Part shown: one piece after another, positions 9,385 to 28,057 of the stretch
Position numbering within the stretch: position 1 is the stretch's first letter
How the letters are laid out: each line of letters starts with the position of its first letter
From: Mycolicibacterium mucogenicum DSM 44124
Lineage (GTDB): Bacteria > Actinomycetota > Actinomycetes > Mycobacteriales > Mycobacteriaceae
Direction: 5' to 3'
DNA: 64,000 bases
Assembly: GCF_005670685.2 (NCBI RefSeq)
Contig: NZ_CP062008.1
Location: forward strand, 62,001 to 126,000
Notes under the pieces: model-generated
The model's input: only the letters and a program-made list of their open reading frames with translations
The model's database searches: none
Told to the model about the DNA's origin: nothing
Position numbers and translations under genes: made by a program

Positions 9385-10925
9385 CCGCATCGGCCGGCCC
9401 CGCAACCGCTGCGCCCGCCGCGGCAGCTGACAATCCGACAAGGCAGTCGACCACCCGGGTCACCATCCTGACCGGTCGGCGCATGACCGACCTGGTGCTC
9501 CCGGCGTCGACGCCGATCGAGACCTACATCGACGAGACGGTCAACGTCCTCGCCGATCTGCTCGACGACACCCCGGCCGACGTGCTGGCCGGGTTCGACT
9601 TCAAGGCGCAGGGTGTCTGGGCGTTCGCGCGTCCGGGGTCGCCGCCGTTGAAGTCCACCGAGTCGCTCGACGACGCCGGGGTTGTCGACGGTGCCCTGCT
9701 GACCTTGGTGTCGGTGAGTCGGACCGAACGCTACCGGCCGCTGGTTGAGGACGTCATCGACGCCATGGCGGTGCTCGAAGAGTCCCCGGAGTTCGACGGC
9801 GCCGCGCTGAAACGGCTTGTCGGACTGGCCATCCCGGTCGCGACGCTCGCAGTCGCCGGTGCGTCGTTGTGGTCGTGGTCGCAGTCCGGCCACGGTTGGT
9901 GGTGGCCGGTCGCGCTCGGTCTGTTGGGCGCGCTGGTGTTGGGCGGCAGCTTCGTCGCCAAGAGCCGCTACGACAACGTGGATCTGTCCGAGAGTCTTCT
10001 CGTGGCGTCGTTGCCGCTGTTGGGTGGCGCGGCCGCATTGGCGGTTCCGCTACCTCGAGGCATCAACGACATGGGTGCGCCGCAGCTGGCCGGGGCGGCG
10101 GCGGTGATTCTGATCGTCGTGCTGGCGACCCGCGGCGGGCCGCGCAAGCGTGCCGTGGTGGCAGCTTTCCTGGCGGTCATCGCGGCCGCGGTGGCGGGCG
10201 CCGCCATCGCTTACGGATATGGCGGGGCGTCGTGGGTTCCCGCCGGTGCCGTCGCGCTCGGACTGATCGTCGTGACCAACGCGGCGAAGCTCACGGTCGC
10301 GGTGGCGCGGATCGCGCTGCCGCCGATCCCGGCCCCGGGTGAGGTCATCGCGAACGAGGAACTGCTGGATCCGGTTGCCGCGCACAGCGATGTCATCGAC
10401 GAAGAGTCGGCGACATGGCGCGCGATCATCGATTCGGTGCCTGATTCCGCGGCTCGCCTGACCGAACGCAGCACGCTGGCACGACAGCTGTTGATCGGCT
10501 TCCTGAGCGCCGGTGTCACGGTGCTGACCTACGGCGCCATCGCGATCGTCGTGCAGGGACACTTCTTCGTGCACTCGCTGATCGTCGCGGGACTTGTGAC
10601 GGTCATCTGCGGCTTCCGTTCGCGGCTGTATGCCGAACGGTGGTGCGGCTGGGCACTGTTGGCGGCGACGGTGGCCATCCCGACCGGCGTGATGATCAAG
10701 TTGGTCTCCTGGGATGCCGACAGCGCCTGGCTGGCGATCGTGCTGTACGTGGGGCTCGCGGTGGTCGCGCTGATCACGGTCGGCGCGACGGACGGCGTCG
10801 GCCGCGTGTCGCCGGTGACGAAGCGGATACTGGAGCTGACCGACGGTGCGGCGATTGCCGCGGTGATTCCGTTGCTGCTGTGGATCGCCGGTGTTTACGA
10901 CAACATCCGGAACATCCGGTTCTGA
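9381..10925 (+). CDS. eccD1: ESX-1 membrane channel component EccD1
   Basis: 514 residues: a ubiquitin-like cytoplasmic N-terminal domain (about 25-110, TTRVTILTGRRMTDLVLP) followed by many hydrophobic helices to the C-terminus, which fits the 11-helix EccD family. The GTG start at 9381 overlaps the espI stop and keeps the whole N-terminal domain. EccD dimers line the inner membrane part of the secretion complex. This gene ends the first ESX-1 transcription unit; a hairpin follows it. Confidence 0.95.
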   Translation: MTASAGPATAAPAAAADNPTRQSTTRVTILTGRRMTDLVLPASTPIETYIDETVNVLADLLDDTPADVLAGFDFKAQGVWAFARPGSPPLKSTESLDDAGVVDGALLTLVSVSRTERYRPLVEDVIDAMAVLEESPEFDGAALKRLVGLAIPVATLAVAGASLWSWSQSGHGWWWPVALGLLGALVLGGSFVAKSRYDNVDLSESLLVASLPLLGGAAALAVPLPRGINDMGAPQLAGAAAVILIVVLATRGGPRKRAVVAAFLAVIAAAVAGAAIAYGYGGASWVPAGAVALGLIVVTNAAKLTVAVARIALPPIPAPGEVIANEELLDPVAAHSDVIDEESATWRAIIDSVPDSAARLTERSTLARQLLIGFLSAGVTVLTYGAIAIVVQGHFFVHSLIVAGLVTVICGFRSRLYAERWCGWALLAATVAIPTGVMIKLVSWDADSAWLAIVLYVGLAVVALITVGATDGVGRVSPVTKRILELTDGAAIAAVIPLLLWIAGVYDNIRNIRF

Positions 10926-11025: not shown

Positions 11026-12126
11026 ATGTCCGAAAATCACGAGGCCGGCCCGGCGAGTGAGCAGCCGCCGACGGCCGGTGATCTCGAGGAGAAGACCCAG
11101 TTCGTCGATCGGTCGGCGTTCCAGTCGCCGACCGCAGCCGCTCCGGGGACGGGCGACCAGACCCAGGTCGTTCCCTCGACCGCAGCCGCCCCCGAGACGG
11201 GTGACCAGACTCAGGTCGTTCCGCCGACCGTCGCGGCCCCCCAGTGGCAGCCGCCGCAGCCTCCCGTCGCGCCGAACCCTTACGGCCAGCAGGTGCCGCC
11301 CGCGGCCCCGCAGTGGCAGCCGCCGCAGCCGGGCTATCAGCCGCCGCAGCAGCAGTTCGGCCAGCCCGGAGCGCCGGTGCCACCGCAGCCTGAGCAGCCG
11401 TGGAATCCGGCAGGTGCGCCCGTCCCGCCGCCCCCGCCCGGGTTCGGCGCTCCGACCTACGGTGCCCCCGGGTTCGGCGCTCCGGGTTTCGGTGCTCCGG
11501 TCCCGCCGGGATTCGGTCCGGGCGGCGCCCAGCCTGGTTTCGGCGCGCCCCAGCCCGGTGGCTACCCCGGCCCGGGCGGACCGCAGTTCGGCGGACCGGC
11601 CGGTCCGCAGCAGACGCCGGTCGACATGGCCAAGTCGCTGCTCACCAAGGGTGATTCGTTCATCTTCCGGTTGATGACGCGCGGTGTCCGCGGCGAGCTG
11701 ATCCAGCAGCCGTGGTTCCAGAACATGCGGAACAACCCGCAGGGTTCCAACCAGTTCGTCTATCTCGGCTACGGCGGAGCGGTGCTGATCGGGTTGTTCC
11801 TGAGCCTGTTCGGTGGCATCGGATCGCTCATCGCCAGCGTGGTCTGGCTCGGGTTGGCCTACTGCTTCCTGGCCCTCGGCACGAAGCTGGCCGCGCAGTT
11901 CGTGGCCTACGGGATTTGCGGTGTGGGTGCCGTGGCAAGCCTGCTGGGTCTGTTGTTCGGCATCATCGGCCTGGCGGGAGTGAGCAGCAGCCCCTACATC
12001 AGCGGTAGCCTCACGGCGATGCTGATATTGGCTGTGGTGATCAACGGTGTCATCGCAGTTGTTCTGGGCTACATCGGAATTCAGGTCCACAAGGGTATTC
12101 AGAAGATCGCTACCGGTCAGTTCTGA
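11026..12126 (+). CDS. Proline-rich membrane protein with three TQ phospho-motif repeats
   Basis: 366 residues, not recognised as a named family. The N-terminal ~205 residues are Pro/Gln/Gly-rich and cytoplasmic in style. Near the start they carry three similar acidic-TQ sites: EKTQFVD at residues ~22-28 and DQTQVVP twice (~45 and ~62), inside a tandem repeat (PxTxAAPxTGDQTQVVP). TQ sites with V at +3 resemble phosphothreonine peptides bound by FHA domains. A phenylalanine/glycine repeat (GFGAP) follows. The C-terminal ~160 residues hold about four hydrophobic helices. A two-FHA transporter is encoded two genes on and a Ser/Thr kinase nearby, so I infer a phospho-scaffold. It starts 100 bases after eccD1 with site AGGGAG. 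Confidence 0.8.
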   Translation: MSENHEAGPASEQPPTAGDLEEKTQFVDRSAFQSPTAAAPGTGDQTQVVPSTAAAPETGDQTQVVPPTVAAPQWQPPQPPVAPNPYGQQVPPAAPQWQPPQPGYQPPQQQFGQPGAPVPPQPEQPWNPAGAPVPPPPPGFGAPTYGAPGFGAPGFGAPVPPGFGPGGAQPGFGAPQPGGYPGPGGPQFGGPAGPQQTPVDMAKSLLTKGDSFIFRLMTRGVRGELIQQPWFQNMRNNPQGSNQFVYLGYGGAVLIGLFLSLFGGIGSLIASVVWLGLAYCFLALGTKLAAQFVAYGICGVGAVASLLGLLFGIIGLAGVSSSPYISGSLTAMLILAVVINGVIAVVLGYIGIQVHKGIQKIATGQF

Positions 12127-12226: not shown

Positions 12227-13705
12227 ATGACAGGCGATTTCGGATTGCGGGTGATACGCGGAACGGCGCTGCGACGTTCGGTGGCGGTATGCGCGGTGAC
12301 GCTGCTCGCCGGTTGTGCGCCGACCGTCGCCGGCACCGCGGTGTCGCCTGTCAACGACCCCTTCCACGTCGCCGACCTCCCGGCCAAGGATGGTCCGAGT
12401 GGGTTGCGCGACAACGCGCCCGCAGCGGTCGGCAAGGTGCAGAACACCAACAACAGCGACGTCGACCGACTGGCGTTGCAGGCGATCAACGACATCGCCG
12501 AGTACTGGCAACACGACTACAGCGCATCGGGTTTGAAGGGCTCGTTCAAGCCCATCGAGAAGTTCCTGTCGTACGACGCTCGCGATCGGAACAGTCCGGA
12601 GGCGTGCGAAGAGGACACCGCCGGGCTGGTGAATGCCTTCTACTGCCCCAGTGAGAAGCTGATGGCCTGGGACCGCGGCATCATGGTGCCGACCGGGCGA
12701 AAGTACTTCGGCGACGTCTCAGTCGCCGGTCTGATCGGGCATGAGTACGGCCACGCGATCCAGTACATGGCGAAGCTGGTGACCCGCAGTACGCCCGTCA
12801 TCGTCCGTGAACAACAGGCCGACTGCTTTGCCGGCGCGTATCTGCACTATGTCGCGGCCGGTGATTCCAAGCGGTTCATGATGAGCACCGGCGACGGCCT
12901 CAACCATGTGCTCGCCGGACTGATCACCGTCCGGGACCCAACGCTGGGGCCGCACGACGACGACATGCTCACCGACGGCCACGGCACCGCGCTGGACCGG
13001 GTCAGCGCGTTCCAGCAGGGCTTCACCGTCGGACCGCAAGCCTGCGCGGCCATCGATCTGAACGACATCAAACAGCGCCGCAAGGGCCTGCCGATGGAGC
13101 TCGAAGATGAGCCGACGGACGACGATCACCGGTCCGCCGACCTGCCCATCGACAAGGACACGATCGGCACCCTGGTCGAGTTGCTCGGGGTGATCTATTC
13201 CCCGAAGCAGCCCCCGAAGCTGACATACGGTCCGGCGAAATGCGATACCTCGCAAGGTGATTCGCCTGCTTCATACTGTCCGTCGACGAACACGATCTCG
13301 GTGAACCTGCCCGCCCTGCAACAGATCGGCACACCGGCTGACATGGCCGAGAAGACTCTGATCCAGGGCGACAACACGGCGTTCTCGATCGTCGTGTCGC
13401 GGTACATGATGGCGCTGGAGAACCAGCGTGGAGTCAAGCTGGACGACCCGACGGCCGCGTTACGCACAGCCTGCCTGACCGCGCAGGCCCAGCGTCAGAT
13501 GGCCAAGCCGCATGACCTGCCCAGTGGTGCCAGCCTGCAGTTGACCGCCGGTGACCTGGACAAGGCCGTCGCCGGGCTGCTGACCAACGGATACGTCGCC
13601 ACGGCGGTCGATGGGCAGGGTGTGCCGGCCGCGTTCACCCGGATCGCGGCGTTCCGGGCCGGGCTGGCCACCGACGACGAGGGCTGCTACAAGCGCTACC
13701 AGTGA
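12227..13705 (+). CDS. Lipoprotein zinc metalloprotease (LpqM-like)
   Basis: 492 residues. A signal peptide ends in the lipobox LLAGC near residue 27, so it should be anchored outside the cytoplasmic membrane. The catalytic HExxH-type motif is HEYGH (near residue 174), followed ~22 residues later by EQQADCFAGAYLHY, which supplies the third zinc ligand as in the neutral zinc metallopeptidase (YpfJ/LpqM-like) group. The second half (from ~310) looks like a degenerate repeat of the fold without the motif. LpqM of M. smegmatis, a lipoprotein of this type, is needed for conjugal DNA transfer, a process tied to ESX-1; whether this protein does the same is inference. It ends 13 bases before the FHA-ABC gene. 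Confidence 0.85.
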   Translation: MTGDFGLRVIRGTALRRSVAVCAVTLLAGCAPTVAGTAVSPVNDPFHVADLPAKDGPSGLRDNAPAAVGKVQNTNNSDVDRLALQAINDIAEYWQHDYSASGLKGSFKPIEKFLSYDARDRNSPEACEEDTAGLVNAFYCPSEKLMAWDRGIMVPTGRKYFGDVSVAGLIGHEYGHAIQYMAKLVTRSTPVIVREQQADCFAGAYLHYVAAGDSKRFMMSTGDGLNHVLAGLITVRDPTLGPHDDDMLTDGHGTALDRVSAFQQGFTVGPQACAAIDLNDIKQRRKGLPMELEDEPTDDDHRSADLPIDKDTIGTLVELLGVIYSPKQPPKLTYGPAKCDTSQGDSPASYCPSTNTISVNLPALQQIGTPADMAEKTLIQGDNTAFSIVVSRYMMALENQRGVKLDDPTAALRTACLTAQAQRQMAKPHDLPSGASLQLTAGDLDKAVAGLLTNGYVATAVDGQGVPAAFTRIAAFRAGLATDDEGCYKRYQ

Positions 13706-13718
13706 GGAGAGTGCATTC

Positions 13719-16700
13719 GTGAGCTCCGTCCCGCCGCTCATCGTGACGCTCGGCGGCGCCATGTTCACCTTCCCGCCCGGCAAGGAGGTCACCGTCGGCC
13801 GCGGCGAGGCCTCGGACGTCAGAATTCCTGACGCCGGCCCTGGCGCCAAGCACGTGGTCTCCCGGTTGCATCTGATCATCAGGGTGGACCCCGGTGTCGG
13901 TCAGTGGGTGGCAATCGACAAGTCCCGCAACGGAATCTTCGCCAACCGGACCCGCGTGCCGTCGGCCGTCATCAGTGACGACCTCGTGCTGGCCGTCGGA
14001 GTTCCCGACGGGCCGCAGCTCCACTTCCGCACGGCCACCCAGGTCATTCCGGTCGCCAAGTACCGGCAGCCACCGGCGCAGACGGCGCCCCCGCGCCCGA
14101 CGCAGCCGATCCCTCAACCGCCACGGCCGGTTCCGCAGCCGCCGCCTGCACCGCCGCGCCCGCCTGTGCCTGCTTCCCAACGCTCCTCGGGGCCGCCCAC
14201 CGGCGCCGTCACCATCGGGCGGCATTCGACAGCGACCATCAGAGTCGACGATTCGCTGGCCTCCCGGATCCACGCCTACCTGATGCCCGCCCCGACCGGA
14301 ACCCAGTTGTACGACAACGGTTCGGGCAACGGCACTTTCGTCAACGGTCACCGCGTCGAGGCGGTCACGCTGCGTCCCGGGGACGTCATCACCGTCGGCA
14401 ACACCGACCTGGTGTTCACCGGCGGTACCGCGGTCCAGTCGCGGCAGACGGTTGCGACCGGTGGCATCGAGGTACGCCAGGTCGGCCTCGCCATCGAGGG
14501 CCACCAGCTGCTGACCAACGTGGCGTTCGACGCTCGGCCCGGCACTCTTACGGCGGTGATCGGCCCGTCGGGCGCAGGCAAGTCGACGTTGATCAGGCTG
14601 CTCGGCGGCGTCACCAAACCCACGTCCGGGCAGGTCACCTTCGACGGACACGACGTGCACGCACATTATGCGTCGTTGCGGTCGCGGATCGGCATGGTGC
14701 CCCAGGACGACGTCGTCCATCGGCAATTGACTGTCAGCCAGGCGTTGAACTATGCCGCCGAACTCCGGTTACCGCCCGACACGAGCAAGGATGATCGCCA
14801 CGCGGTGGTGGAGCGGGTGCTCGCTGAGCTCGAGCTCACTGCACATCGCGACAAGAGAGTGGACAAGCTTTCGGGCGGGCAGCGCAAGCGCGCTTCGGTG
14901 GCGCTCGAATTGCTCACCGGCCCATCCCTTTTGATCCTCGACGAACCCACGTCAGGTTTGGACCCGGCGCTGGACCGACAGGTCATGCAGATGCTGCGCC
15001 GATTGGCCGATGCCGGGCGCACGGTGCTGGTGGTGACGCACTCGCTCACCTACCTGAACACGTGCGACCAGGTGCTGCTGCTTGCGCCCGGCGGCAAGAC
15101 GGTCTACGCGGGGCCGCCGCAAGCGGTCGGATCAGCGATGGGTACCCAGGACTGGGCGGACATCTTCGCCTGGGTCTCGGCCAATCCCGACGCGGCGCAT
15201 GCGGTGTTCCTGCAGAACAATCCAGCCGCCAACCGACCGGCCGCGCCGCCGGAACCCGCCGGCCCGCTCGGCGCCCCGGCCCGCACCAGTACCGGCCGTC
15301 AAATGCTCACCGTTGCGCGCCGGCAGTTGCAACTGATCTTCGCCGACCGGATCTACACCAGCTTCTTGTTGCTGCTGCCGTTCATCCTGGGCGCGATGTC
15401 GCTGATTGTGCCGGGGGACACCGGATTCGGGGTGGCCACGGTGGGCCACTCCCCCAATGAACCGAACCAGTTGCTCATCGTCGCCAACATCGCGGCAGTG
15501 TTCATGGGGACCGCGCTGACGATCCGTGATCTGGTTGGCGAGCGCACCATCTTCCGCAGGGAGCAGGCGGTCGGGTTGTCGGCCGCCGCGTACCTCTCTG
15601 CCAAAATCGTTGTCTACAGCGTATTTACCGCCATTCAGACAGCGATCGTGGTCGCGATCGTGGTGATCGGCAAGGGTGCGCCCACCCAAGGGGCATTGCT
15701 GTTGGGCAGCCCGACCCTGGACTTCTATGTGAGTCTGACTGTCGCAGCCATCGTTTCGGCAATTCTGGGTCTGCTGCTGTCCTCTCTGGCGCGGTCCAGC
15801 GAGCAGATTCTTCCGATGCTCGTCGTCGTCATCATGTTGTCGATCGTGTTCTCCGGCGGCATGATTCCTGTCACCGGACGTGTCGGCCTGGATCAGGCGT
15901 CGTGGTTCCTGCCGGGGCGGTGGGGTTTCGCCGCGTCTGCGAGCGTGGTCGACCTGCTGAAGATCGCCCCACTCATGTCGGTCGACGATCAGCTGTGGCA
16001 CCACGAATTGCGTTGGTGGGCGCTGGATATCGGTGTGCTGGTGCTGCTGGGCGCAGTTGCCGGGTTCGTGGTGTACCGCCGGCTTCGGCTGCCGGGTGGC
16101 GGCGCTGAATCGGGTGCGCCGAAAGCAGCGATGATCGTGGGCGCCGTGGTCCTGGCGGTGGGGTTTGTGGCCGGTATGACGTACCTGACCCGCGACTCCG
16201 GAAACCGGCCGACGCAACCGACGGCACCCGCTGCGGTACCCAAAGCGGCTCCCCCGGGGCACCGCATCGATCTGGCGAACCTGCTTCCAGACGGCAAGGC
16301 GGTGAGCGTTGTCATGCAGTCGCCGCCGATGGCGACCGCGACCATCGTCACCGCGGAAACTCCACGGGGTGGAACGGCCACTCCCCCGCCGTGCGCCGGT
16401 GTCGCGGACGCGGGCAGCGCCACGACCGTCGTCCCGGGCTTCACCGGGATGTCGGGTATGGAACTGCACAACCCGGCGGACCCGAACGCATGGGTCGTCG
16501 CATATGCGATTGGCTACCCGGGGCCCCAAGCAGCAGAACGGATCCCGGCAGCAGCGATGTGGGCGGGATGTGCGAATACGGCCATTACGTTCGCGGCCGA
16601 CGGCCGGCCGCCGCGGCAACTGGTCGTTGGTGCGGTCACTTCCGACAAGGGCACTGTGACCGCGGAGTTCACCGAACCGGGGCGCAGCTGTCAGCACGTG

Positions 16701-16805
16701 CTGACCACCAAGGCCGATGTGGTGGTCGATGTGCTGGCGTGCAGCCCGGGCGGCGGCACTCAGGCAGCGGAGCTGGCCAAGCAGATCGCTGACAAAGTCA
16801 GCTGA
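13719..16805 (+). CDS. FHA-FHA-ABC transporter fusion with extra C-terminal sensor-like domain
   Basis: 1028 residues with the Rv1747-type architecture plus an extension. FHA domain 1 spans about residues 5-105 (VTVGRGEASDVRI, SRLHL); a proline-rich linker follows; FHA domain 2 spans ~160-245 (VTIGRHSTATIRV, SRIHA, NGSGNGTFVNG). The ABC domain has Walker A GPSGAGKST at ~282, signature LSGGQRKR at ~384 and Walker B LLILDEP at ~404. An ABC2-type membrane domain covers ~540-790. Rv1747 ends near here, but this protein has one more helix (~803-824) and a ~200-residue exported domain with four cysteines, similar to the lipoprotein encoded next and to the PknH-type sensor. GTG at 13719 is chosen because it gives a complete first FHA domain. 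Likely controlled by threonine phosphorylation; the exported substrate is unknown. Confidence 0.9.
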   Translation: MSSVPPLIVTLGGAMFTFPPGKEVTVGRGEASDVRIPDAGPGAKHVVSRLHLIIRVDPGVGQWVAIDKSRNGIFANRTRVPSAVISDDLVLAVGVPDGPQLHFRTATQVIPVAKYRQPPAQTAPPRPTQPIPQPPRPVPQPPPAPPRPPVPASQRSSGPPTGAVTIGRHSTATIRVDDSLASRIHAYLMPAPTGTQLYDNGSGNGTFVNGHRVEAVTLRPGDVITVGNTDLVFTGGTAVQSRQTVATGGIEVRQVGLAIEGHQLLTNVAFDARPGTLTAVIGPSGAGKSTLIRLLGGVTKPTSGQVTFDGHDVHAHYASLRSRIGMVPQDDVVHRQLTVSQALNYAAELRLPPDTSKDDRHAVVERVLAELELTAHRDKRVDKLSGGQRKRASVALELLTGPSLLILDEPTSGLDPALDRQVMQMLRRLADAGRTVLVVTHSLTYLNTCDQVLLLAPGGKTVYAGPPQAVGSAMGTQDWADIFAWVSANPDAAHAVFLQNNPAANRPAAPPEPAGPLGAPARTSTGRQMLTVARRQLQLIFADRIYTSFLLLLPFILGAMSLIVPGDTGFGVATVGHSPNEPNQLLIVANIAAVFMGTALTIRDLVGERTIFRREQAVGLSAAAYLSAKIVVYSVFTAIQTAIVVAIVVIGKGAPTQGALLLGSPTLDFYVSLTVAAIVSAILGLLLSSLARSSEQILPMLVVVIMLSIVFSGGMIPVTGRVGLDQASWFLPGRWGFAASASVVDLLKIAPLMSVDDQLWHHELRWWALDIGVLVLLGAVAGFVVYRRLRLPGGGAESGAPKAAMIVGAVVLAVGFVAGMTYLTRDSGNRPTQPTAPAAVPKAAPPGHRIDLANLLPDGKAVSVVMQSPPMATATIVTAETPRGGTATPPPCAGVADAGSATTVVPGFTGMSGMELHNPADPNAWVVAYAIGYPGPQAAERIPAAAMWAGCANTAITFAADGRPPRQLVVGAVTSDKGTVTAEFTEPGRSCQHVLTTKADVVVDVLACSPGGGTQAAELAKQIADKVS

Positions 16806-16817
16806 CGGAAGGATCAG

Positions 16818-17519
16818 ATGAACCTCTGGCGTACTGGAATGCTCATCGGCGCCGTAGTCGTTGTGGCGGCGGGTTGTTCGGTTACTGACCGGAAGGTCTC
16901 GGGCACGGCCACGACGGCCGCGGGCACTGCTTCCCCGACGACGTCGACGTCAGCTGTCGCCAAACCGATCGATGATGCCGGCCTGCCGAAGTTGTTGGCC
17001 TCGGCCGCCGACATCAGCGACCTGGTGGGCGTCGCCATGACGCCGGAGGCGATCTTCAGGAAGCCGGATACCAAGCTGAGAGTGGAACCGATTCGCTGCC
17101 TCGAAGCGGTCATGCCGGCGCTCAACACCATTGGGTACTACAGCCGAACGGGTTTCGCGGGGCAGCTTCTTCATGGGGATCACCATGCGCAAGTCGTGCA
17201 GGCGGTTGCCGCGTTTCCCACAGATGCGGAGGCGGTGGACTTTCGTGAGGCGACCACCCGACACTGGCGGTCGTGTCAGAACCAGCAGGCGACCGTCACG
17301 GGCGGTCAGGCGCCCCTGACGTATGCATTGGACAGAGTTGAATTGGTCGATTCGGTCGCGAGCATCCCGGTGTCGGGGATGGCCGGCGATGGGGCCCGAG
17401 TCCCGTGTCAGCACGCGTTGGGTGCGCGCAGGAACGTGATCATCGATGTGCGGGTGTGCGCTCCGAATGTTGGGAACAAGGGGCGCGATCTGGTGGCGAA
17501 GATCGCGGCGGGCCTCTGA
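16818..17519 (+). CDS. Lipoprotein with PknH-like sensor domain
   Basis: 233 residues with lipobox VAAGC at residue ~19. The mature part carries four cysteines in the contexts IRCLEA, WRSCQNQ, VPCQHAL and VRVCAPN. The last two align with SCQHVL and LACSPG of the domain that ends the preceding FHA-ABC protein, so the two domains are paralogous within this locus. The fold resembles the extracellular sensor of the kinase PknH. The start ATG at 16818 has the site GGAAGGA and lies 12 bases after the transporter gene, so the two are probably co-transcribed. The ligand is unknown. Confidence 0.85.
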   Translation: MNLWRTGMLIGAVVVVAAGCSVTDRKVSGTATTAAGTASPTTSTSAVAKPIDDAGLPKLLASAADISDLVGVAMTPEAIFRKPDTKLRVEPIRCLEAVMPALNTIGYYSRTGFAGQLLHGDHHAQVVQAVAAFPTDAEAVDFREATTRHWRSCQNQQATVTGGQAPLTYALDRVELVDSVASIPVSGMAGDGARVPCQHALGARRNVIIDVRVCAPNVGNKGRDLVAKIAAGL

Positions 17520-17520
17520 C

Positions 17521-19557
17521 TCAGCGGATGACGCTCATCAGCGGAACAAAGTTGGCGTTGAGATACTCGGTAGCTAGGTAACCGCCGGGATCAGCAAGTG
17601 CCGAAACGCTATTAGGGTCGTCCACGATGATCATCGATCCCCGGTAGGCAGCCAATTGGTAGGGAAGTCCAGCTGCCCCGCCGTTACCGGCGGCCTTGTC
17701 GGTGCGCACGACTACCAACACTTCACTGTGAATCAGGAACAATTTGCCCAGGTCTGGCATCGACCGGGTTGAACTGCTGTCACCTGACTTGCGACGCAAG
17801 TCGGGGTCGTAGTTCAAGCCGAGCGAATTGAGATAGTCCGCCGCATTGGATGGTGTCAGGGTCTGAGAGACACCGTCGTCCGACACGTGGATCACCTGGA
17901 CGCTCTTCCCTGCAGCCCGCGGATTCTGGTTCTTCAGATCGGTCTGCTGGGACGACACCTGGTCGATCAGGGTGTCGGCGTCCTTGTCACGGCCGACGAT
18001 CTTGCCGATCCATTTGAGCTGGGTCTGCCAGTTCCATGCTCGGCTGGTGTCTTTCGGCTGCGTCACGGTCGGCGCGATCGCTGCGAGGCGCTGGTAGGTC
18101 GCGTCGTCGATGTCGCCGGTCGCAATGATGACGTCGGGTTTGGCGGCCTGAATGGCGCTGGTGTCGATGAAGCCGACGGTGTCCTTGACCGAGGGGTTTC
18201 CGGTGATCTTGGACTGCAACCACGAGGGCAGGGACGTACCTGCGCCGGCGATCGCCACTGGTTGCAGACCGAGCGACAGCACGGCGTCGGCGTCGCCGGG
18301 GCCCAGGGCGGCGACAGCTGTTGGCGCCTTTGTGATTTCAGTGGTGCCGTGGGCGTGGGTGAATGACTGCGCGGTGTACGCCGGGGCGCCGGGCTTGCTG
18401 GTCAGCATGATGGAGGCGACGACCGCGATGACGGTGATCACGGCGGCGACCGCGGTACCGATGACCAGTCGACGCTTGCGTGAACTCTTCTGTGGAGCAG
18501 CGGGAGGATGGGGTGCCGCCATCTGGCCAGGCAGAGGGCCACGTGGCGGGGCGGGCGGGTAAGGACCGCTGAACTGTCCGCTCGGGTAAGTCAGCACGCC
18601 GCTGGGTGGTGTCGGCTGACGCGGCGACCATGATTGCGGCCCCGGCCCCTGCCTCGGTCCCGGCGGCAGCAGCTGGCCGGGTGGCTGTGGCGCCGGGCCA
18701 GTGTTCGTGACGGCGGCAGTGGCCGCGGCCGCGAATTCCCGCGCAGTCTGGTAGCGGGCGTTGGGGTCCTTGGCCATGCCGCGGGCGATGACTTCGTTCA
18801 GCGCCCACGGCAGGTGGGGCACGCGGTCAGTGACGCGGGGGATTTCTCCTGTCACGTGTGCCGCGGCGATCGCGGCAATACCGCCGGGGAGTCCCCCGTA
18901 CGGCGTCCGGCCGGTGAGCAGTACGAAGAAGCTGCACGCCAGAGAGTAGACATCGGCACGCGAATCGACGTGCTGCCCGCTCAGTGCCTCGGGCGGGGCG
19001 TAGGCGATGGACGCCATCACCGAGCCGTCTGTGGTCAGGTGCGCGGCGTCGTCGAAGGCGCGAGCAATTCCGAAGTCCGCCAGGAAGACTCGTTCTTCAT
19101 CGCCGGGATCTTCGGCGCTGGCCAGCAGAAAGTTGGCGGGCTTGACGTCGCGGTGCATGATGCCGCGCCGGTGCGCGTAATCGAGGGCCTTTGCGACTTC
19201 GGTGATGATGCGGGCTGCCCGTGTGGGTGACATCCGCCCGGACCGGACTTCCTGGTCGGCGTCGGTACCCGCGACGTACTGCATGGCGATCCACAGCTGA
19301 CCCGCCTCGGTTTCGCCGCGGGAGTAGACGGCGACGATGTTCGGGTGGTCGAGGGTGGCGGCTACGTTGGCTTCGCGGAGGAAGCGCTCCCGGAACTGGC
19401 CGTCGCCCTGGATGGAAGTGGTGAGGACCTTCAGGGCGTCGCTGCGGGGCAGCTGTGGGTTCTTGGCTTTGTAGACCACGCCCATGCCGCCAACACCGAG
19501 GACGGATTCGATGGTGTAGCCGGCGACGATGTCGCCGGGGTTGAAGGTCGATGTCAT
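17521..19557 (-). CDS. Receptor Ser/Thr kinase with siderophore-binding-protein-like ectodomain
   Basis: 678 residues. Residues ~1-285 are a PknB-type kinase with glycine loop LGVGGMGVVY, catalytic HRDVKPAN, DFG, and activation-loop threonines in TTDGSVMASIAYAPPE. A Pro-rich juxtamembrane linker (~290-355) leads to one helix (~361-384, VIGTAVAAVITVIAVVASIML). The outside part (~390-678) resembles FecB/FepB-type periplasmic binding proteins for iron-siderophores: HGTTEITKAPTAVAALG, DADAVLSLGLQPVAIAG, TSAIQAAKPDVIIA, YQRLAAIAPTV, and a long central helix. I know of no described mycobacterial kinase with this ectodomain. It may sense a siderophore or a related small ligand. It follows a lipoprotein gene by 10 bases and ends one base from the convergent lipoprotein gene. 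Confidence 0.92.
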   Translation of the reverse strand: MTSTFNPGDIVAGYTIESVLGVGGMGVVYKAKNPQLPRSDALKVLTTSIQGDGQFRERFLREANVAATLDHPNIVAVYSRGETEAGQLWIAMQYVAGTDADQEVRSGRMSPTRAARIITEVAKALDYAHRRGIMHRDVKPANFLLASAEDPGDEERVFLADFGIARAFDDAAHLTTDGSVMASIAYAPPEALSGQHVDSRADVYSLACSFFVLLTGRTPYGGLPGGIAAIAAAHVTGEIPRVTDRVPHLPWALNEVIARGMAKDPNARYQTAREFAAAATAAVTNTGPAPQPPGQLLPPGPRQGPGPQSWSPRQPTPPSGVLTYPSGQFSGPYPPAPPRGPLPGQMAAPHPPAAPQKSSRKRRLVIGTAVAAVITVIAVVASIMLTSKPGAPAYTAQSFTHAHGTTEITKAPTAVAALGPGDADAVLSLGLQPVAIAGAGTSLPSWLQSKITGNPSVKDTVGFIDTSAIQAAKPDVIIATGDIDDATYQRLAAIAPTVTQPKDTSRAWNWQTQLKWIGKIVGRDKDADTLIDQVSSQQTDLKNQNPRAAGKSVQVIHVSDDGVSQTLTPSNAADYLNSLGLNYDPDLRRKSGDSSSTRSMPDLGKLFLIHSEVLVVVRTDKAAGNGGAAGLPYQLAAYRGSMIIVDDPNSVSALADPGGYLATEYLNANFVPLMSVIR

Positions 19558-19567
19558 CGTGGTCCGA

Positions 19568-20770: not shown

Positions 20771-20861
20771 CGTCTCCCCGGACTGCGCAACTCCGCGAGG
20801 CGCTGCACAGTGACTCTTCGCGAACTGTACGCACTCGAGCGTCTGAGCGCGTCAGCCGGCG

Positions 20862-21200
20862 CTACGGCTGGGCGGGCGGATTACTGGCCGTGATCTCGGC
20901 GACCAGCTCGTTGAGGCGGGCCCGGTCGGCGTCGATGGACTCGGTGGCCTTCGCGGTCGCGTTGCCCAAGGCCTCATTGATCCGGGCTTCGACGGTGTCC
21001 GCGCCGAGGCGCAGCAGCCCGTCTTCGATGAACAGATCCGTCAGCCAGTGGTGGCCGTTGAGGGTGACCTCGACGGTCTTGGCTTCGTCGGTCGCGGTGA
21101 ACGATTCGGTGTTCATCTTGGCGAGCTGCTCGTCCATGACCGACTGCAGGCGCTGGGCCTGCTGGAGAACCGCAGCGACCTCGGGGTGCATCTCGATCAT
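20862..21200 (-). CDS. espL: EspL, YbaB/EbfC-like ESX-1 protein
   Basis: 112 residues, small and acidic, with the YbaB/EbfC arrangement of two helices flanking a strand segment (VEVTLNGHHWLTDLFIEDGLL). In ESX-1 loci EspL is encoded beside espB and is needed for the stability of other Esp proteins. The start overlaps the espB stop by four bases (ATGA), indicating translational coupling. Confidence 0.88.
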   Translation of the reverse strand: MIEMHPEVAAVLQQAQRLQSVMDEQLAKMNTESFTATDEAKTVEVTLNGHHWLTDLFIEDGLLRLGADTVEARINEALGNATAKATESIDADRARLNELVAEITASNPPAQP

Positions 21201-22777
21201 TTGGTGTCCTTCTTGTCATCGATCTTGGTGCGACGCCGGTGTCCGATGACGCCGTCGGTGAAGGCGCGGTCCTCCGTGTACAGGACCTCATCGGGCGACA
21301 GATTCGGGTTGCGCTTCTTTTCCTTGCCGCCTTCGCGGCCACCGCCGTGGCCACCCATACCGCCACCCATGCCGCCGCCCATACCGCCGCCACCGACCGG
21401 TGGGCGGCCCGCGGCCTGGCTGGCGCCGCCGGCTGCCGCACCACCAGCGCCCACCGCAGGTGCGACGGCTGCCGGCTGCATGGGCTGGCCGCCCAAACCG
21501 CCGCCACCGCCACCGGATCCGCCGCCTGCACCGCCGCCGGCGGACGCCGGGCTCACGCTGGGACCGTCGGGCAGGCTCGGCATCTCCGGCTTGTCGCCGC
21601 CCAAGCCGCCGGGCATCCCCCCGCCCGGTGAACCCTGTCCGGATCCGCCCGACGGTGAGCCGCCACCGGAAGGTGAACCGCCAGAAGGTGATCCACCGCC
21701 CGCGGGCTTCTGCTCACCAGCAGAAGCCGGGCTGACGCTCGGCGATTCCGGCATCGACGGCGTCGCACCGCTCGGCGCCCCGCCGCCCGGGGTCCCGCCG
21801 CCACCGGACGGCCCACCACCGCCAGGTCCTTGGGGCGCACCCGTGCCCTGGCCGTCTTTCTTCGCCACATCCCCCGGCTTGACGGCAGGCCAGGCGTTCG
21901 ACCCAAAGTTGGGTGGTGGCGGCGTCACGAGGGAACGGATCGTCGCCTGTTGTGCGTACTTGGCCCGCACGGTGTCGGATTCCTGCTGCTTCGTGGCGTG
22001 GCCGGTGAAGAAGTCGTATGCCGCTTGCCCGACTGTCGCGAGCACGCTGGCATTCTCGTAGTCCGCCACGTCCTGCATGCTGGGGTGCTCGGGTCGTCTG
22101 CCGCCATGGATCGCGGACAGGTCCATGGCCTGGATGGCCAGGTTGTTCGCCGCCTGGGCCATCGCCGTCAGCCACGTTGAGTAGTCCTTCAGCGCATTCT
22201 CTGCCGCTTCGGCAGCATCGCCTTCCCATTCGACGCCGGCCATATTGAACTTGCTGTTCAGTTCGGCCAGCTTCGTCACCACTCCGACCATTTGTGTGCC
22301 GAACTCGATCATCGAGGTGCCCTGGTCACCGCTGTTGATCTGCTTAGCGGCTACTTCCCAATCCATGCCGGGGTTACTGGGGTGCGATTCGGCCCCGCCG
22401 AGCGATTCGAGCATCCAGGGCAAGCTGCCGACCGGGTCTGCGGGCGCCGGTGCCGGGGGCAGATTGGGGGTGATGGGTGCACCTCCGCCAGCGCCGAGCT
22501 TGGTGGCATCGATGCCCGACTTCCCGGCCGCGTCGGCGGCGTCGTAGGCCGCGGCGGCCGCCCGCAGGCAGGCGGCCAGTCGTCGATTTTGAGCGCGCCC
22601 GGCCTTGAATGCGGCGTCGAGCTGCTGCAGGTTGTTCTTGAGGAAATTGGTGGCGTCCTGCGCGATTGCCAACTCGCATGGCGCTGTGGGTGCCGGCGGC
22701 AAGGTCGGCAGATCTACGTCAACTTCAGCTGCCTTGGCGTTCAGCGTCTCCGAGGAGACTTTCAGTTTTCCAGCCAT
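21197..22777 (-). CDS. espB: EspB, secreted ESX-1 substrate
   Basis: 526 residues. The N-terminal ~290 residues fit the fused PE-PPE-like fold of EspB: TAPCELAIAQDATNFL, YDAAD (the YxxxD/E export signal) near residue 80, and the W-x-G turn VEWEGDAAEAAE near ~183. The rest is a Gly/Pro/Ser-rich low-complexity tail with repeats such as PSGGGSPSGG. The C-terminal LYTEDRAFTDGVIGHRRR matches the EspB C-terminus, which is the part cleaved by MycP1 in M. tuberculosis. EspB forms ring-shaped oligomers outside the cell. It is encoded 14 bases after eccE1. Confidence 0.93.
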   Translation of the reverse strand: MAGKLKVSSETLNAKAAEVDVDLPTLPPAPTAPCELAIAQDATNFLKNNLQQLDAAFKAGRAQNRRLAACLRAAAAAYDAADAAGKSGIDATKLGAGGGAPITPNLPPAPAPADPVGSLPWMLESLGGAESHPSNPGMDWEVAAKQINSGDQGTSMIEFGTQMVGVVTKLAELNSKFNMAGVEWEGDAAEAAENALKDYSTWLTAMAQAANNLAIQAMDLSAIHGGRRPEHPSMQDVADYENASVLATVGQAAYDFFTGHATKQQESDTVRAKYAQQATIRSLVTPPPPNFGSNAWPAVKPGDVAKKDGQGTGAPQGPGGGGPSGGGGTPGGGAPSGATPSMPESPSVSPASAGEQKPAGGGSPSGGSPSGGGSPSGGSGQGSPGGGMPGGLGGDKPEMPSLPDGPSVSPASAGGGAGGGSGGGGGGLGGQPMQPAAVAPAVGAGGAAAGGASQAAGRPPVGGGGMGGGMGGGMGGHGGGREGGKEKKRNPNLSPDEVLYTEDRAFTDGVIGHRRRTKIDDKKDTK

Positions 22778-22791
22778 CTACTTGCTCCCCC

Positions 22792-24177
22792 TTACTTCTC
22801 CAGCGCCATCTGGAACCGGCTCTCCTCGCGCGGGTTGATCAGCTGGATCGGCAGCTGACGGTGGCGCGGGGTGTCGATAAAGTTGTGGCGCAACAGAATT
22901 CGTGAAATACCCGGGTGTGGACCGAGGTAGGTGGTGGCATTGGGCCATGCCACCTTCGGGACATTCCCGATCCGGGCATTGATGAATCCCGCGAATTCCT
23001 TGAACTGCGGTGCCAGGGTGACGACAGCGCCGGCGGCCGCCGAGCGCACCACGAACTGGGTGAACACGTGCGCGTCGCCGAGGTTGATCGTGGAGTCGAC
23101 GTTGTCGAACGGCATGTACACCGGGTAGCGGTCGGCCGTCTCCCCCACCAGCACACCGGCCGAGCCGATCGGCAGTTCGTAGTGCCGGTCGGTGATCGGG
23201 CTGAGCCCCTCCAGCGCGGCGCGCTGTCCACCGAACAGACACGAGAAGCCGCGCGGCGTCGTCGGCGTCGCCAGCGTCGTCAGCAGTACAGTTGCCGTCG
23301 GCGCTTGACCCGGCTTCACCCGGACCCGGGTGATCGTGTGGTCGGCACGGGCCGACCACCACATGTTGGGCCCGCCGGGTGCCGAGTAGGCCGCGGTAAA
23401 TGTGCTGCGGCCCTTGATGGTTGACCAGGTCTCGCGCTCGAAGCTGATCGCGGTTGCCCGGTCGTACTCCTCGAAACTGCGGGCGGGGCGGGCGTCGATG
23501 CCGTGGCTGGCCAACTGGTCGGCAATGCGGGTGGTGGTCGCCACCAGGTAGCCGGCCAGGCCGGCGACCCCGGTACCGCGGCGCAGGGCCGACCGGCGGG
23601 TCTCGTCGGGGTTGGCGCGCAACACGATCCAGGTCCGCCGATTGGCGGGCGCGGCGTAGGGGCCGACCACCTGCTCGTACAGCGCGACGACACTCGACGG
23701 GGCGGTCTTGCCGACGCGGTAGCCCGCCGAGACGATGTCCGCCTCGAGATCCGGTCCGTGCGCCGCGAGCAACTGCTCCACCAGTCGGGTGTCGAGGTTG
23801 TCGTCGGTGAAGGCCTCGCCGTTGACGATCACTGTCGGGGTGAACGAGCGCGGCACCAGTTCGACAACCGAGACCAGGTGGTCACCCAGCCAGCGCACCG
23901 CGACGTGGTCGCCGGGCATGACCGTCGCGCCGACGGCCGGCTCCGAGGGAGCCGGCGGGGCCACCTTGCGCCGGCGCTGCCAGGCGAACATCGCGGCGAT
24001 CCAGCCCGTCAGCCGCCGTCCGCGGATGGCGAGGACCGAGAACAGCGCGATCAGGACACCCAGGGTTATCCCGAGCCACAGCAGGTCGAAATGCATGCAC
24101 AGCAGTACGACCGCGGGCACCAGCGTCGCGGCCCACAGCAGGTGCCCCGTGGTGAAGCGGAACCCGAAGTGCCTCAT
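22792..24177 (-). CDS. eccE1: ESX-1 membrane component EccE1
   Basis: 461 residues. Two adjacent N-terminal helices (about 10-50, LLWAATLVPAVVLLCMHF and WLGITLGVLIALFSVLAI) are followed by a soluble domain, the usual EccE layout. EccE lies at the periphery of the ESX membrane complex. ATG at 24177 overlaps the mycP1 stop by four bases, giving a mycP1-eccE1-espB-espL operon in the same order as M. tuberculosis Rv3883c-Rv3880c. Confidence 0.93.
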   Translation of the reverse strand: MRHFGFRFTTGHLLWAATLVPAVVLLCMHFDLLWLGITLGVLIALFSVLAIRGRRLTGWIAAMFAWQRRRKVAPPAPSEPAVGATVMPGDHVAVRWLGDHLVSVVELVPRSFTPTVIVNGEAFTDDNLDTRLVEQLLAAHGPDLEADIVSAGYRVGKTAPSSVVALYEQVVGPYAAPANRRTWIVLRANPDETRRSALRRGTGVAGLAGYLVATTTRIADQLASHGIDARPARSFEEYDRATAISFERETWSTIKGRSTFTAAYSAPGGPNMWWSARADHTITRVRVKPGQAPTATVLLTTLATPTTPRGFSCLFGGQRAALEGLSPITDRHYELPIGSAGVLVGETADRYPVYMPFDNVDSTINLGDAHVFTQFVVRSAAAGAVVTLAPQFKEFAGFINARIGNVPKVAWPNATTYLGPHPGISRILLRHNFIDTPRHRQLPIQLINPREESRFQMALEK

Positions 24178-25526
24178 CGGCGCCTCAGCGCACGGCGAGT
24201 CACCGCACCGAGGCCGAGCAGAATGATCAGCGCGGCACCGGCCACGACGACCATGGTGATGGGTCCACGGTCTGGCGGCGGGATGTACACCGGCGGCGGG
24301 ATGCTCTTGACCTGGTAGGGCGCCTGCTTGGGGCCGGCGGGAACGTCCCACGTCAGCGCCGCCACCGGATCGATGACACCGGCACCGACGTAGTTGTCCA
24401 CTCCCCCACCGGGGTGCCGCGCCGTCGCCGTGATGCGGGTGACGATCTGTGCGGCGGTCAGGTCGGGGAAACGCTGCCGCAGCAGGGCCGCCAGACCCGA
24501 GACGTAGGCCGCGGCGAACGACGTGCCGTTGATGGGGATGGGGCCGTCCTGCCCGTTGAGCCCATTGACCGGATTGCCGTCGTAGCCCAGCGCGGTGGCG
24601 CCTTCGGCGGGTGCGGCGGCGCCCACCCAGGGGCCGGACATCGAGAAGTTGCTCGGCTGGCCCTGCGGCCCGATGCCGCCGACGGTCAGCACCAGCGGCG
24701 AGTACCAGGCCGGCGAGACGATCGTCTGCACCTGCTTCCAGCCCCGCGGATCCGACGGCACGCTGACGTCCGGCGGCGGGTTCTGGTTGCAGTCCTGGCC
24801 GGTGTTGCCGGCGGCCACGATGACCACGGCGTTCTTGACGTTCACCGCGTAGGCGATGGCCGAGCCGACGCCCGTCTCGTTGATGGCCCGGGTCACCTTG
24901 TAGCAGGCGGCTTCCGAAATGTTGATGACCTGCGCGCCCAGGTTCGCCGCGTGCACGATGGCGCGGGCCAGGCTGCGCAGCGAGCCGGCGGTCTGGGTGG
25001 TGTTCGGATCGTTGGGATCGCTGCGAGAGTCCTTCGGCTGGAATGCCTCCGAGGTCTGGCGCAGCGACAGGATGCGGGCTTCGGGGGCGACGCCGATGAA
25101 CGCGTCCGTCGGCGCCGGACGGCCGGCGATGATCGACGCGGTCAGCGTGCCGTGGGCATCGCAGTCCGACAGGCCGTTGCCGCCCTTGTCGACGAAGTCG
25201 CCGCCGGGCTCGGCGGGGACCCGCGGCGAGGCGTTCACACCGGTGTCGATGACGGCGACGGTGACGCCGGCTCCCGTCGCGAACTTCTGCGCCTCGGCGA
25301 GGTGCAGATAGTCGGCCGCCCACGGCTTGTCGGCGAAGTTCGTGTTCGGCAGCACAGTCGGCGCGGAGCAGATCTTGCGCTGCTCCATCGGCTGATCGGG
25401 GCCGGTGTCGTCGGGCGGGACGGCACCGGGGTCGATCGCCGGCGGTTCGATGGCGAGTGCGGGCGGGGCGCTGGCGACAGCCAGCAGCAACGCGGCAGCT
25501 ACGGCGGCTAGACGACGCACGAGCAA
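24174..25526 (-). CDS. mycP1: Mycosin-1, membrane-anchored subtilisin-like protease
   Basis: 450 residues. A signal peptide (LAAVAAALLLAVASAPPALA) is followed by a subtilase domain with the triad Asp in VAVIDTGVNASPRVP, His in DCDAHGTLTASI and Ser in NGTSFAAAYVSGLAALL, then a C-terminal helix (ITMVVVAGAALIILLGLGA) that anchors it with the protease outside. MycP1 cleaves EspB and stabilises the ESX-1 complex. The frame opens with TTG at 25526; a GTG at 25520 gives MRRLAAVAAALL and is an equally good start. The first gene of the minus-strand ESX-1 operon. Confidence 0.95.
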   Translation of the reverse strand: MLVRRLAAVAAALLLAVASAPPALAIEPPAIDPGAVPPDDTGPDQPMEQRKICSAPTVLPNTNFADKPWAADYLHLAEAQKFATGAGVTVAVIDTGVNASPRVPAEPGGDFVDKGGNGLSDCDAHGTLTASIIAGRPAPTDAFIGVAPEARILSLRQTSEAFQPKDSRSDPNDPNTTQTAGSLRSLARAIVHAANLGAQVINISEAACYKVTRAINETGVGSAIAYAVNVKNAVVIVAAGNTGQDCNQNPPPDVSVPSDPRGWKQVQTIVSPAWYSPLVLTVGGIGPQGQPSNFSMSGPWVGAAAPAEGATALGYDGNPVNGLNGQDGPIPINGTSFAAAYVSGLAALLRQRFPDLTAAQIVTRITATARHPGGGVDNYVGAGVIDPVAALTWDVPAGPKQAPYQVKSIPPPVYIPPPDRGPITMVVVAGAALIILLGLGAVTRRALRRR

Positions 25527-28032: not shown

Positions 28033-28057
28033 GGGTGTTCCTTTTGAATAGAACGGA

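What the first reader, a model, noticed from the sequence alone, without database searches (positions are those of the whole stretch)
17521..19557. Ser/Thr kinase with a siderophore-binding-protein-like ectodomain inside ESX-1
Seen: a complete PknB-type kinase, one helix, and a ~290-residue outside domain whose text follows FecB/FepB-type binding proteins (KAPTAVAALG, DAVLSLGLQPVAIAG, IQAAKPDVIIA). Known: mycobacterial receptor kinases carry PASTA, beta-propeller, PknH-type or other sensors. I recall none with a class III binding-protein fold. Inference: the cell uses it to sense a siderophore or a related ligand and signals to the ESX-1 neighbourhood.
Basis: partly seen in the sequence, partly recalled or inferred. 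Interest (0 to 1): 0.9.

Follow-up and report, generated by a model that had tools for sequence, protein, structure and literature searches.

The report
Sensor kinase tied to type VII secretion
A mycobacterial membrane kinase whose outer part is built like an iron-compound catcher is a relative of an already published kinase, and it belongs to a little-noticed signalling set often found beside protein-secretion (type VII) genes in two bacterial genera.

Summary

The siderophore reading is weak. Pocket residues named for FecB2 are not kept, no IdeR box was found, the genome's only FecCD match lies about 170 kb away, and published hemin inhibition also hit the isolated PknQ kinase domain.

New here:
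- DUF7373 lipoprotein genes lie directly upstream in 71 of 79 Mycobacterium loci and 22 of 22 Nocardia-type loci.
- Type VII secretion core genes lie nearby in 22 of 79 Mycobacterium loci and were shown for 18 of 22 Nocardia-type loci. Here the kinase closes a co-directional mycP1-eccE1-espB-espL-DUF7373-kinase run.
- FHA-HTH neighbours, of the kind PknQ phosphorylates, are relatives of EspM, the ESX-1 transcription factor.

Best reading: a receptor kinase of type VII secretion loci signalling to FHA partners. Its ligand is unknown.

The parts
17521..19557 (-). PknQ-type receptor Ser/Thr kinase, 678 aa
18748..19518 (-). kinase domain, residues 14-270; G-loop GVGGMG, HRDVKPAN and DFG present
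18409..18465 (-). single membrane helix, residues about 365-383
17524..18405 (-). class III binding-protein ectodomain, residues 385-678 (N-lobe, linking helix, C-lobe)
17524..17928 (-). C-lobe (residues 544-678), the half kept by Nocardia relatives; holds the R-T-D...G-rich loop
19568..20770 (-). DUF7373 lipoprotein, commonest partner, 10 bp upstream of the kinase
20862..21200 (-). espL by position (YbaB family), 91 bp upstream of DUF7373, same strand
21197..22777 (-). espB
22792..24171 (-). eccE1
   Evidence: TIGR03923, E 1.4e-77
24174..25526 (-). mycP1 (mycosin)
   Evidence: TIGR03921, E 9.7e-120
16818..17519 (+). PknH_C sensor lipoprotein, convergent with the kinase
13611..16805 (+). two FHA domains + ABC ATPase + ABC2 membrane domain + C-terminal PknH_C; Rv1747-like, likely FHA partner of the kinase
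12227..13705 (+). Zn_peptidase protein with lipobox-like start, recurrent neighbour (25 of 79)
11026..12126 (+). Pro-rich membrane protein with three [DE]xTQ[VF]V motifs; candidate phosphosite scaffold
9453..10925 (+). eccD1
7990..9384 (+). espI-like MinD/ParA ATPase (EspI N-terminal model hit below its cut-off)

Best explanation
This is the chromosomal, ESX-1-embedded form of the PknQ kinase family. The ectodomain (a complete class III binding protein in Mycobacterium, only its C-lobe in Nocardia) works with the DUF7373 lipoprotein encoded just upstream as the outside sensor of a type VII secretion locus. A cue from the envelope or from the secretion system pairs or re-orients the receptors, the kinase domains autophosphorylate, and phosphothreonines recruit FHA proteins. 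In this locus the likely FHA partner is the FHA-ABC exporter, with the TQ[VF]V-rich membrane protein as a likely substrate. In many relatives it is an EspM-type FHA-HTH regulator. SHOWN by computation: the domains, the predicted fold, conserved kinase motifs, linkage to DUF7373, FHA and T7SS genes, and the half-ectodomain in Nocardia. SHOWN in print for a relative: PknQ autophosphorylates, phosphorylates MupFHA and binds it. INFERRED: the DUF7373 contact, the cue, the substrates in this genome, and an effect on ESX-1.
For: DUF7373 directly upstream on the same strand in 71 of 79 Mycobacterium loci and 22 of 22 half-SBP loci, although the window's genome has only 3 DUF7373 matches and 13 kinase matches. 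T7SS core genes in 22 of 79 Mycobacterium stretches: 14 with genes at 71-99% to the window's ESX-1 (one of them, L090, also has a 27% piece), 8 with another type at 30-35%. The eccB-to-eccD1 order is complete in 6 of 6 extended ESX-1 loci. On the kinase tree ESX-1 adjacency by core genes needs 4 changes; with the wider label that adds two loci with only an EspI-like gene it needs 6. In Nocardia 10 of 10 extended loci carry EccC, EccD and EccB matches. pRAW carries both the kinase and a full T7SS cluster, about 24 kb apart. FHA+HTH frame in 45 of 79 loci; a table in the PknQ paper sets MupFHA beside Rv3863 and Rv3863 is EspM. MupFHA phosphosites T123 and T210 resemble motifs in the 11026-12126 product.
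Against: 57 of 79 Mycobacterium stretches show no T7SS core gene; pMUM001 keeps the kinase with none in the 24 kb read, and the pRAW and pMYC1 stretches of about 40 kb show none either. L054, one of the five nearest relatives, has no espB or eccE1 match in the 6.7 kb before espL. The EspM relative of this genome lacks the FHA domain, and the PknQ paper's text says MupFHA has no functional homolog in M. tuberculosis. The phosphosite motif was framed after seeing the window protein; looser forms occur once each in 6 other of 20 window genes, and a strict form also in espB. Linkage is not function; within Nocardia it may be simple inheritance. Within Mycobacterium the N-lobe is at least as conserved as the C-lobe (0.641 against 0.564). 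The C-lobe acid test was inconclusive.
Confidence: 0.53

Rival explanations
1. Siderophore or heme sensor: the ectodomain closes on a ferric siderophore or heme and switches the kinase, as the first reader and the PknQ authors proposed.
For: Closest folds are MhuP/FecB2, PiaA, YfiY, SirA and FecB. Both lobes are kept in Mycobacterium, with W124, W126 and W132 in 75, 71 and 81 of 81 rows. Fe3+ and hemin inhibit PknQ.
Against: FecB2 Tyr39, Trp58, Phe59, Phe131/132 and Arg184 are not kept, and the N-lobe arginine of HtsA/SirA/YfiY is absent in the window protein. Hemin inhibited the isolated kinase domain as well as the full protein. No IdeR box in the window. The half-ectodomain of Nocardia has no cleft. 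No link to an iron-related T7SS was tested.
Confidence: 0.15
2. Two-lobe sensor for a non-iron ligand, for example an envelope fragment or small metabolite, as in other SBP-type kinase receptors.
For: Strongly conserved residues unlike FecB2: D38, T96, D100, Y199, R234, D236. Kinases with Glu/Gln-type binding domains are listed in print.
Against: No ligand was identified here, and the half form lacks one lobe.
Confidence: 0.2
3. Mobile passenger: a plasmid-derived signalling cassette that settled near ESX loci because such loci move with plasmids, with no role in secretion.
For: 19 of 72,556 plasmid records cover at least 80% of the query in one place. The tree needs 4 to 6 changes of ESX-1 adjacency, and 57 of 79 stretches show no T7SS core gene.
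Against: Tight co-directional packing with espL in 5 of 5 nearest relatives and with espB in 4 of 5, and Nocardia linkage shown in 18 of 22 loci.
Confidence: 0.12

Closest known systems
PknQ (MUP011) of M. ulcerans pMUM001, PMC4238996 (passages seen)
   Same: PknB-type kinase, one helix, class III binding-protein ectodomain; DUF7373-type matches upstream (in two pieces); FHA gene in the same locus
   Different: Plasmid-borne; FHA partner is an FHA-HTH protein. The window form is chromosomal, co-directional with espB-espL, and has an FHA-ABC exporter instead. Kinase-domain identity to the window: 57% for pMUM001, 96-97% for the five nearest ESX-1 orthologs
PknF-Rv1747 of M. tuberculosis (PMC3908365, start of abstract in a search listing only)
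   Same: Kinase gene beside an FHA-containing ABC exporter
   Different: The exporter here ends in a PknH_C domain; the PknF ectodomain was not compared
FecB2/MhuP (Rv0265c)
   Different: Pocket residues not kept; fused to a kinase; a kinase-specific C-lobe loop
EspM (Rv3863), PMC7002343 (abstract and passages seen)
   Same: FHA-HTH architecture of regulators in PknQ-type loci; the own EspM relative is 46% identical to the pRAW FHA-HTH protein over its C-terminal part
   Different: EspM is encoded at the 5' end of ESX-1, not next to the kinase; no kinase is named for it in the passages seen

Membership tests
PknQ-type kinase | Hanks kinase domain + one helix + FepB-like ectodomain in that order | tested here: met
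PknQ-type kinase | Same kinase clade as pMUM001 and pRAW kinases | tested here: met
   all 81 SBP-kinase rows, incl. L017 and L018, fall in one group (support 94, not starred) away from 11 own paralogs; PknH_C-like kinases from the same loci nest inside that group
PknQ-type kinase | Phosphorylates and binds a neighbouring FHA protein | not testable with these tools
   published for PknQ; FHA-ABC gene present here
Class III solute-binding protein (Peripla_BP_2) | Two alpha/beta lobes joined by one long helix | tested here: met
   helix 140-160 of the ectodomain
Class III solute-binding protein (Peripla_BP_2) | Acid on the N-lobe for docking to a permease (role recalled) | tested here: not met
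   D/E in 4 of 81 kinases against 24 of 32 stand-alone SBPs
Class III solute-binding protein (Peripla_BP_2) | Acid on the C-lobe for docking to a permease (role recalled) | tested here: inconclusive
   FecB2-type SBPs seem to carry it two positions away
FecB2-type heme/siderophore binder | Tyr39, Trp58, Phe59, Phe131/132, Arg184 | tested here: not met
   aligned residues differ
FecB2-type heme/siderophore binder | Binds heme or ferric siderophore | not testable with these tools
   needs purified ectodomain
ESX-1 locus gene | Inside or beside a complete ESX-1 cluster | tested here: met

The most novel reading that the evidence does not exclude
DUF7373 lipoproteins plus a kinase whose sensor is a whole or half binding protein form the sensory arm of type VII secretion systems in Mycobacteriaceae. 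They read the state of the secretion machine or envelope and report it through FHA domains to exporters and to EspM-type regulators, supplying a missing input for ESX-dependent gene regulation. Nocardia shows that the C-lobe alone suffices, so the receptor may read a protein partner rather than a small ligand.
Probability: 0.3. Interest if true: 0.85.

Novelty: new variant of a known kind. Interest (0 to 1): 0.62.

Why it matters
Stimuli of mycobacterial Ser/Thr kinases are mostly unknown (general knowledge), and how the ESX-1 system acts on its transcription factor EspM is open: PMC7002343 suggests control through EspM's FHA domain, and the passages seen name no kinase. A kinase family tied to T7SS loci in two genera, with an FHA-HTH substrate of EspM type in a relative, makes that question testable. 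The half-binding-protein sensor of Nocardia kinases, for which Pfam reported no ectodomain family in the two scanned, is a clean natural experiment on whether such receptors need a ligand cleft.

Tried and rejected
Rejected: novelty of the architecture (PknQ, 2014). Rejected as evidence for iron sensing: hemin inhibition of PknQ, since the kinase domain alone was inhibited too. Fusions outside the genus: one search covered 150 order genomes and gave 10 matches outside Mycobacterium at E<=1e-20; 8 sit in frames of 331-371 aa, too short for a fusion; of the two longer frames, L175 (616 aa) was read and looks like a stand-alone SBP behind an over-long frame, the other (600 aa) was not read. One Tsukamurella plasmid does match along the whole protein. 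Streptomyces L013 (634-aa frame, first 420 shown) also looks like a stand-alone SBP. C-lobe docking acid: inconclusive. A first strand-naive extraction of stand-alone SBPs was faulty and replaced. Promoter and terminator scan of 17300-23000: no promoter-like site; four terminator-like sites, all on the plus strand, no more than in shuffles; weak evidence. AU test for half + full SBP kinases as one clade once 18 other kinases were added: p 0.219, neither shown nor rejected. DUF7373 fold: no PDB sequence match; its structure prediction never finished.

Rows dropped: L123 (kinase broken into two frames) from alignments and trees. Six of the 83 other genomes with a strong match, and a second place in G214, were not fetched for context. 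L118 and five long-branch paralogs were left out of the second tree. One of twelve other own kinases (L143) was left out of both trees. Five fetched loci (L167, L171, L173-L175) were left out of the stand-alone SBP set. The chance figure for T7SS proximity used an assumed 3% background and is not relied on.

Full report

PRIOR ART. M. ulcerans PknQ (MUP011, 660 aa) is described with a transmembrane region and an extracellular 'FepB-like iron transporter module' (PMC4238996; passages seen). It autophosphorylates, phosphorylates and binds MupFHA, and Fe3+ or hemin inhibits it. But hemin inhibited the isolated kinase domain as well as the full protein, so that result does not show sensing by the ectodomain. 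A 2005 survey lists kinases with a Glu/Gln binding domain (Streptomyces coelicolor) and an ANF-receptor-like domain (Nostoc) (PMC1262709; passages seen). Ten paper searches were accepted; no title or abstract start listed there speaks of this T7SS linkage, and no paper holds the word DUF7373.

FAMILY. 214 proteins match the ectodomain at E<=0.001, 120 of them listed. Of 396 genus genomes, 84 (counted twice by hand from the listing, own genome included) have a match at E<=2.2e-42. Apart from a second piece of the broken G056 gene, the next matches start at E 2.3e-24 and mostly sit in frames of 300-400 aa: a clear gap. On plasmids, 19 of 72,556 records cover at least 80% of the query in one place; pRAW, pMUM001 and pMYC1 are among the 40 rows listed.

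NEIGHBOURS. I fetched 79 loci from 77 of the 83 other genomes with a strong match. A DUF7373 gene lies directly upstream on the same strand in 71 of 79 (76 of 79 anywhere in the stretch); FHA-type hits in 59, PknH_C in 66, FHA-ABC exporter in 17, Zn_peptidase in 25 (ten stretches have under 5 kb on one side). The own genome gives 13 kinase and 3 DUF7373 matches. In the window the minus-strand run mycP1-eccE1-espB-espL-DUF7373-kinase has gaps of 2, 14, -4, 91 and 10 bases, consistent with an operon. Of the five nearest relatives, 5 keep espL-DUF7373-kinase on one strand and 4 also keep eccE1-espB; L054 has no espB or eccE1 match in the 6.7 kb before espL.

TYPE VII SECRETION LINK. NCBIfam names EccB, EccCa, EccCb, two WXG100 proteins, EccE and mycosin in the window, Pfam EccD and EspB. 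T7SS core genes occur in 22 of 79 stretches: 14 have genes at 71-99% to the window's ESX-1 genes (L090 also a 27% piece), 8 have another T7SS at 30-35%. In six genomes extended further, matches to eccB, both eccC halves, the PE- and PPE-like genes, two WXG100 genes, espI and eccD1 all appear. The kinase module lies between eccD1 and espL, or directly after eccD1 in either orientation, or beyond mycP1. On the kinase tree, ESX-1 adjacency by core genes (15 of 81 rows) needs 4 changes, and any T7SS (23 rows) needs 7. My first, wider label (17 rows, two of them with only an EspI-like gene) needed 6, all forced by starred branches. pRAW carries the kinase at 40-42 kb and a full T7SS cluster from 66 kb. 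Against: 57 of 79 stretches show no T7SS core gene.

NOCARDIA HALF SENSOR. Kinases of Nocardia and Antrihabitans match only about residues 150-293 of the ectodomain (hhalign E 4.5e-29), that is, from the linking helix through the C-lobe. They share the loop RTDxxAGxGGxxGLP (strict form in 56, loose form in 80 of 81 Mycobacterium rows; R234, D236, G242 and G246 in 81 of 81), which the two own stand-alone SBPs aligned there lack. Pfam reports no ectodomain family for the two scanned. 67 proteins matched this half ectodomain, 66 of them with a kinase domain. In 22 loci (20 from 20 of these genomes, plus L014 and L015), 22 have DUF7373 directly upstream and 0 have an N-lobe hit. T7SS genes: EccD inside the stretch in 13 of 22; on extending 10 genomes, EccC, EccD and EccB in 10 of 10, MycP and EccE each in 9 of 10. 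Together 18 of 22 are shown and 4 (L210, L212, L220, L014) are not. The kinase trees put half and full forms close: 98* as a group against own paralogs; PknH_C-like kinases from the same loci fall inside the group, so ectodomains were probably swapped within one clade, and the AU test leaves half + full as a clade open (p 0.219).

LIGAND. FecB2 residues named in PMC10553834 (passages) map through the alignment to other residues: Tyr39 to P36 (Pro in 63 of 81), Trp58 and Phe59 to Ala and Gly in the window, Phe131/132 to variable positions, Arg184 to a gap; the N-lobe arginine of HtsA/SirA/YfiY falls at G97/D98. The N-lobe acid that I recall as the permease dock is D/E in 4 of 81 kinases against 24 of 32 stand-alone SBPs; the 8 without it look FecB-like by their sequence, which is my reading. 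The only FecCD match of the genome is about 170 kb away. No IdeR box (consensus recalled) with up to 3 mismatches in 64 kb. Within Mycobacterium the N-lobe is not decaying, so a ligand is still possible.

OUTPUT. FHA+HTH frames occur in 45 of 79 loci. Pfam on pRAW's: FHA 9.5e-13, HTH_3 2.7e-11; on MupFHA: FHA 1.2e-13, HTH_31 5.4e-6, just at the cut-off. The words helix-turn-helix and DNA-binding do not occur in the main text of the PknQ paper. Its Table 2 sets MUP018c beside Rv3863, while its text says MupFHA has no functional homolog in M. tuberculosis. Rv3863 was later named EspM, the FHA-HTH repressor of whiB6 (PMC7002343; abstract and passages). This genome has an EspM relative without FHA at G000:C1:56221-56997 beside a WhiB gene; M. 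smegmatis EspM also lacks FHA. In the window the FHA partner would instead be the FHA-ABC exporter. MupFHA phosphosites T123 (DDATEHI) and T210 (EERTHVL), with a numbering offset of 10 checked on seven residues, resemble EEKTQFV and two DQTQVV in the 11026-12126 product. 16 of 20 related frames (window included) carry such a motif, with at most 0.04 expected each by shuffling; 29 of 52 FHA-HTH frames carry a looser form against 5.2 expected. Caveat: I framed the motif after seeing the window protein, looser forms occur once each in 6 other of 20 window genes, and a strict form also in espB.

VERDICT. Known architecture, siderophore role unproven and weakened, but a cross-genus T7SS-linked signalling module with a half-binding-protein variant that I did not find in print in the searches named above. 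The host is probably a Mycolicibacterium of the aubagnense/mucogenicum kind (inferred from the named ectodomain hits: sp. SMC-18 96%, M. aubagnense 92%). After the recount I lowered the main confidence slightly (0.55 to 0.53) and raised the passenger rival (0.10 to 0.12), because the core-gene label needs 4 changes rather than 6 and L054 lacks espB.

Noticed in passing
G000:C1:56221-56997 and 55582-55929 (L198): EspM relative without the FHA domain beside a WhiB gene, just 5' of the window; M. smegmatis EspM is reported to lack FHA too.
   Followed up: yes
13611-16805: FHA-FHA-ABC exporter carrying a C-terminal PknH_C sensor domain, a sensor fused to the exporter rather than to a kinase.
   Followed up: partly
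11026-12126: Three [DE]xTQ[VF]V repeats in a Pro-rich membrane protein; they look like phosphothreonine sites.
   Followed up: partly
L015, whole stretch: Array of about eight DUF7373 matches around two half-SBP kinases in Nocardia ignorata, near a T7SS locus.
   Followed up: yes
L108, L109, L115-L117, L119-L122: Tandem loci in which a PknH_C-like kinase follows the SBP kinase; the two kinase types intermix on the tree, suggesting ectodomain exchange.
   Followed up: partly
L123; plasmid records H16 and H20: Kinase gene broken or annotated in pieces; left as is.
   Followed up: no
L003, L163-L166, L169, L170, L172: FecB-like stand-alone SBPs also lack the N-lobe acid found in other class III SBPs.
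   Followed up: no
G000:C1:51593-52339: A second kinase gene lies about 10 kb 5' of the window, close to the EspM end of ESX-1.
   Followed up: no
L054:1-6769: A close relative with the kinase module and espL but no espB or eccE1 match before espL.
   Followed up: partly
26017-29811: Fructose PTS transporter, a PfkB-like sugar kinase and a DeoR-like regulator next to mycP1 (read from the translations only).
   Followed up: no
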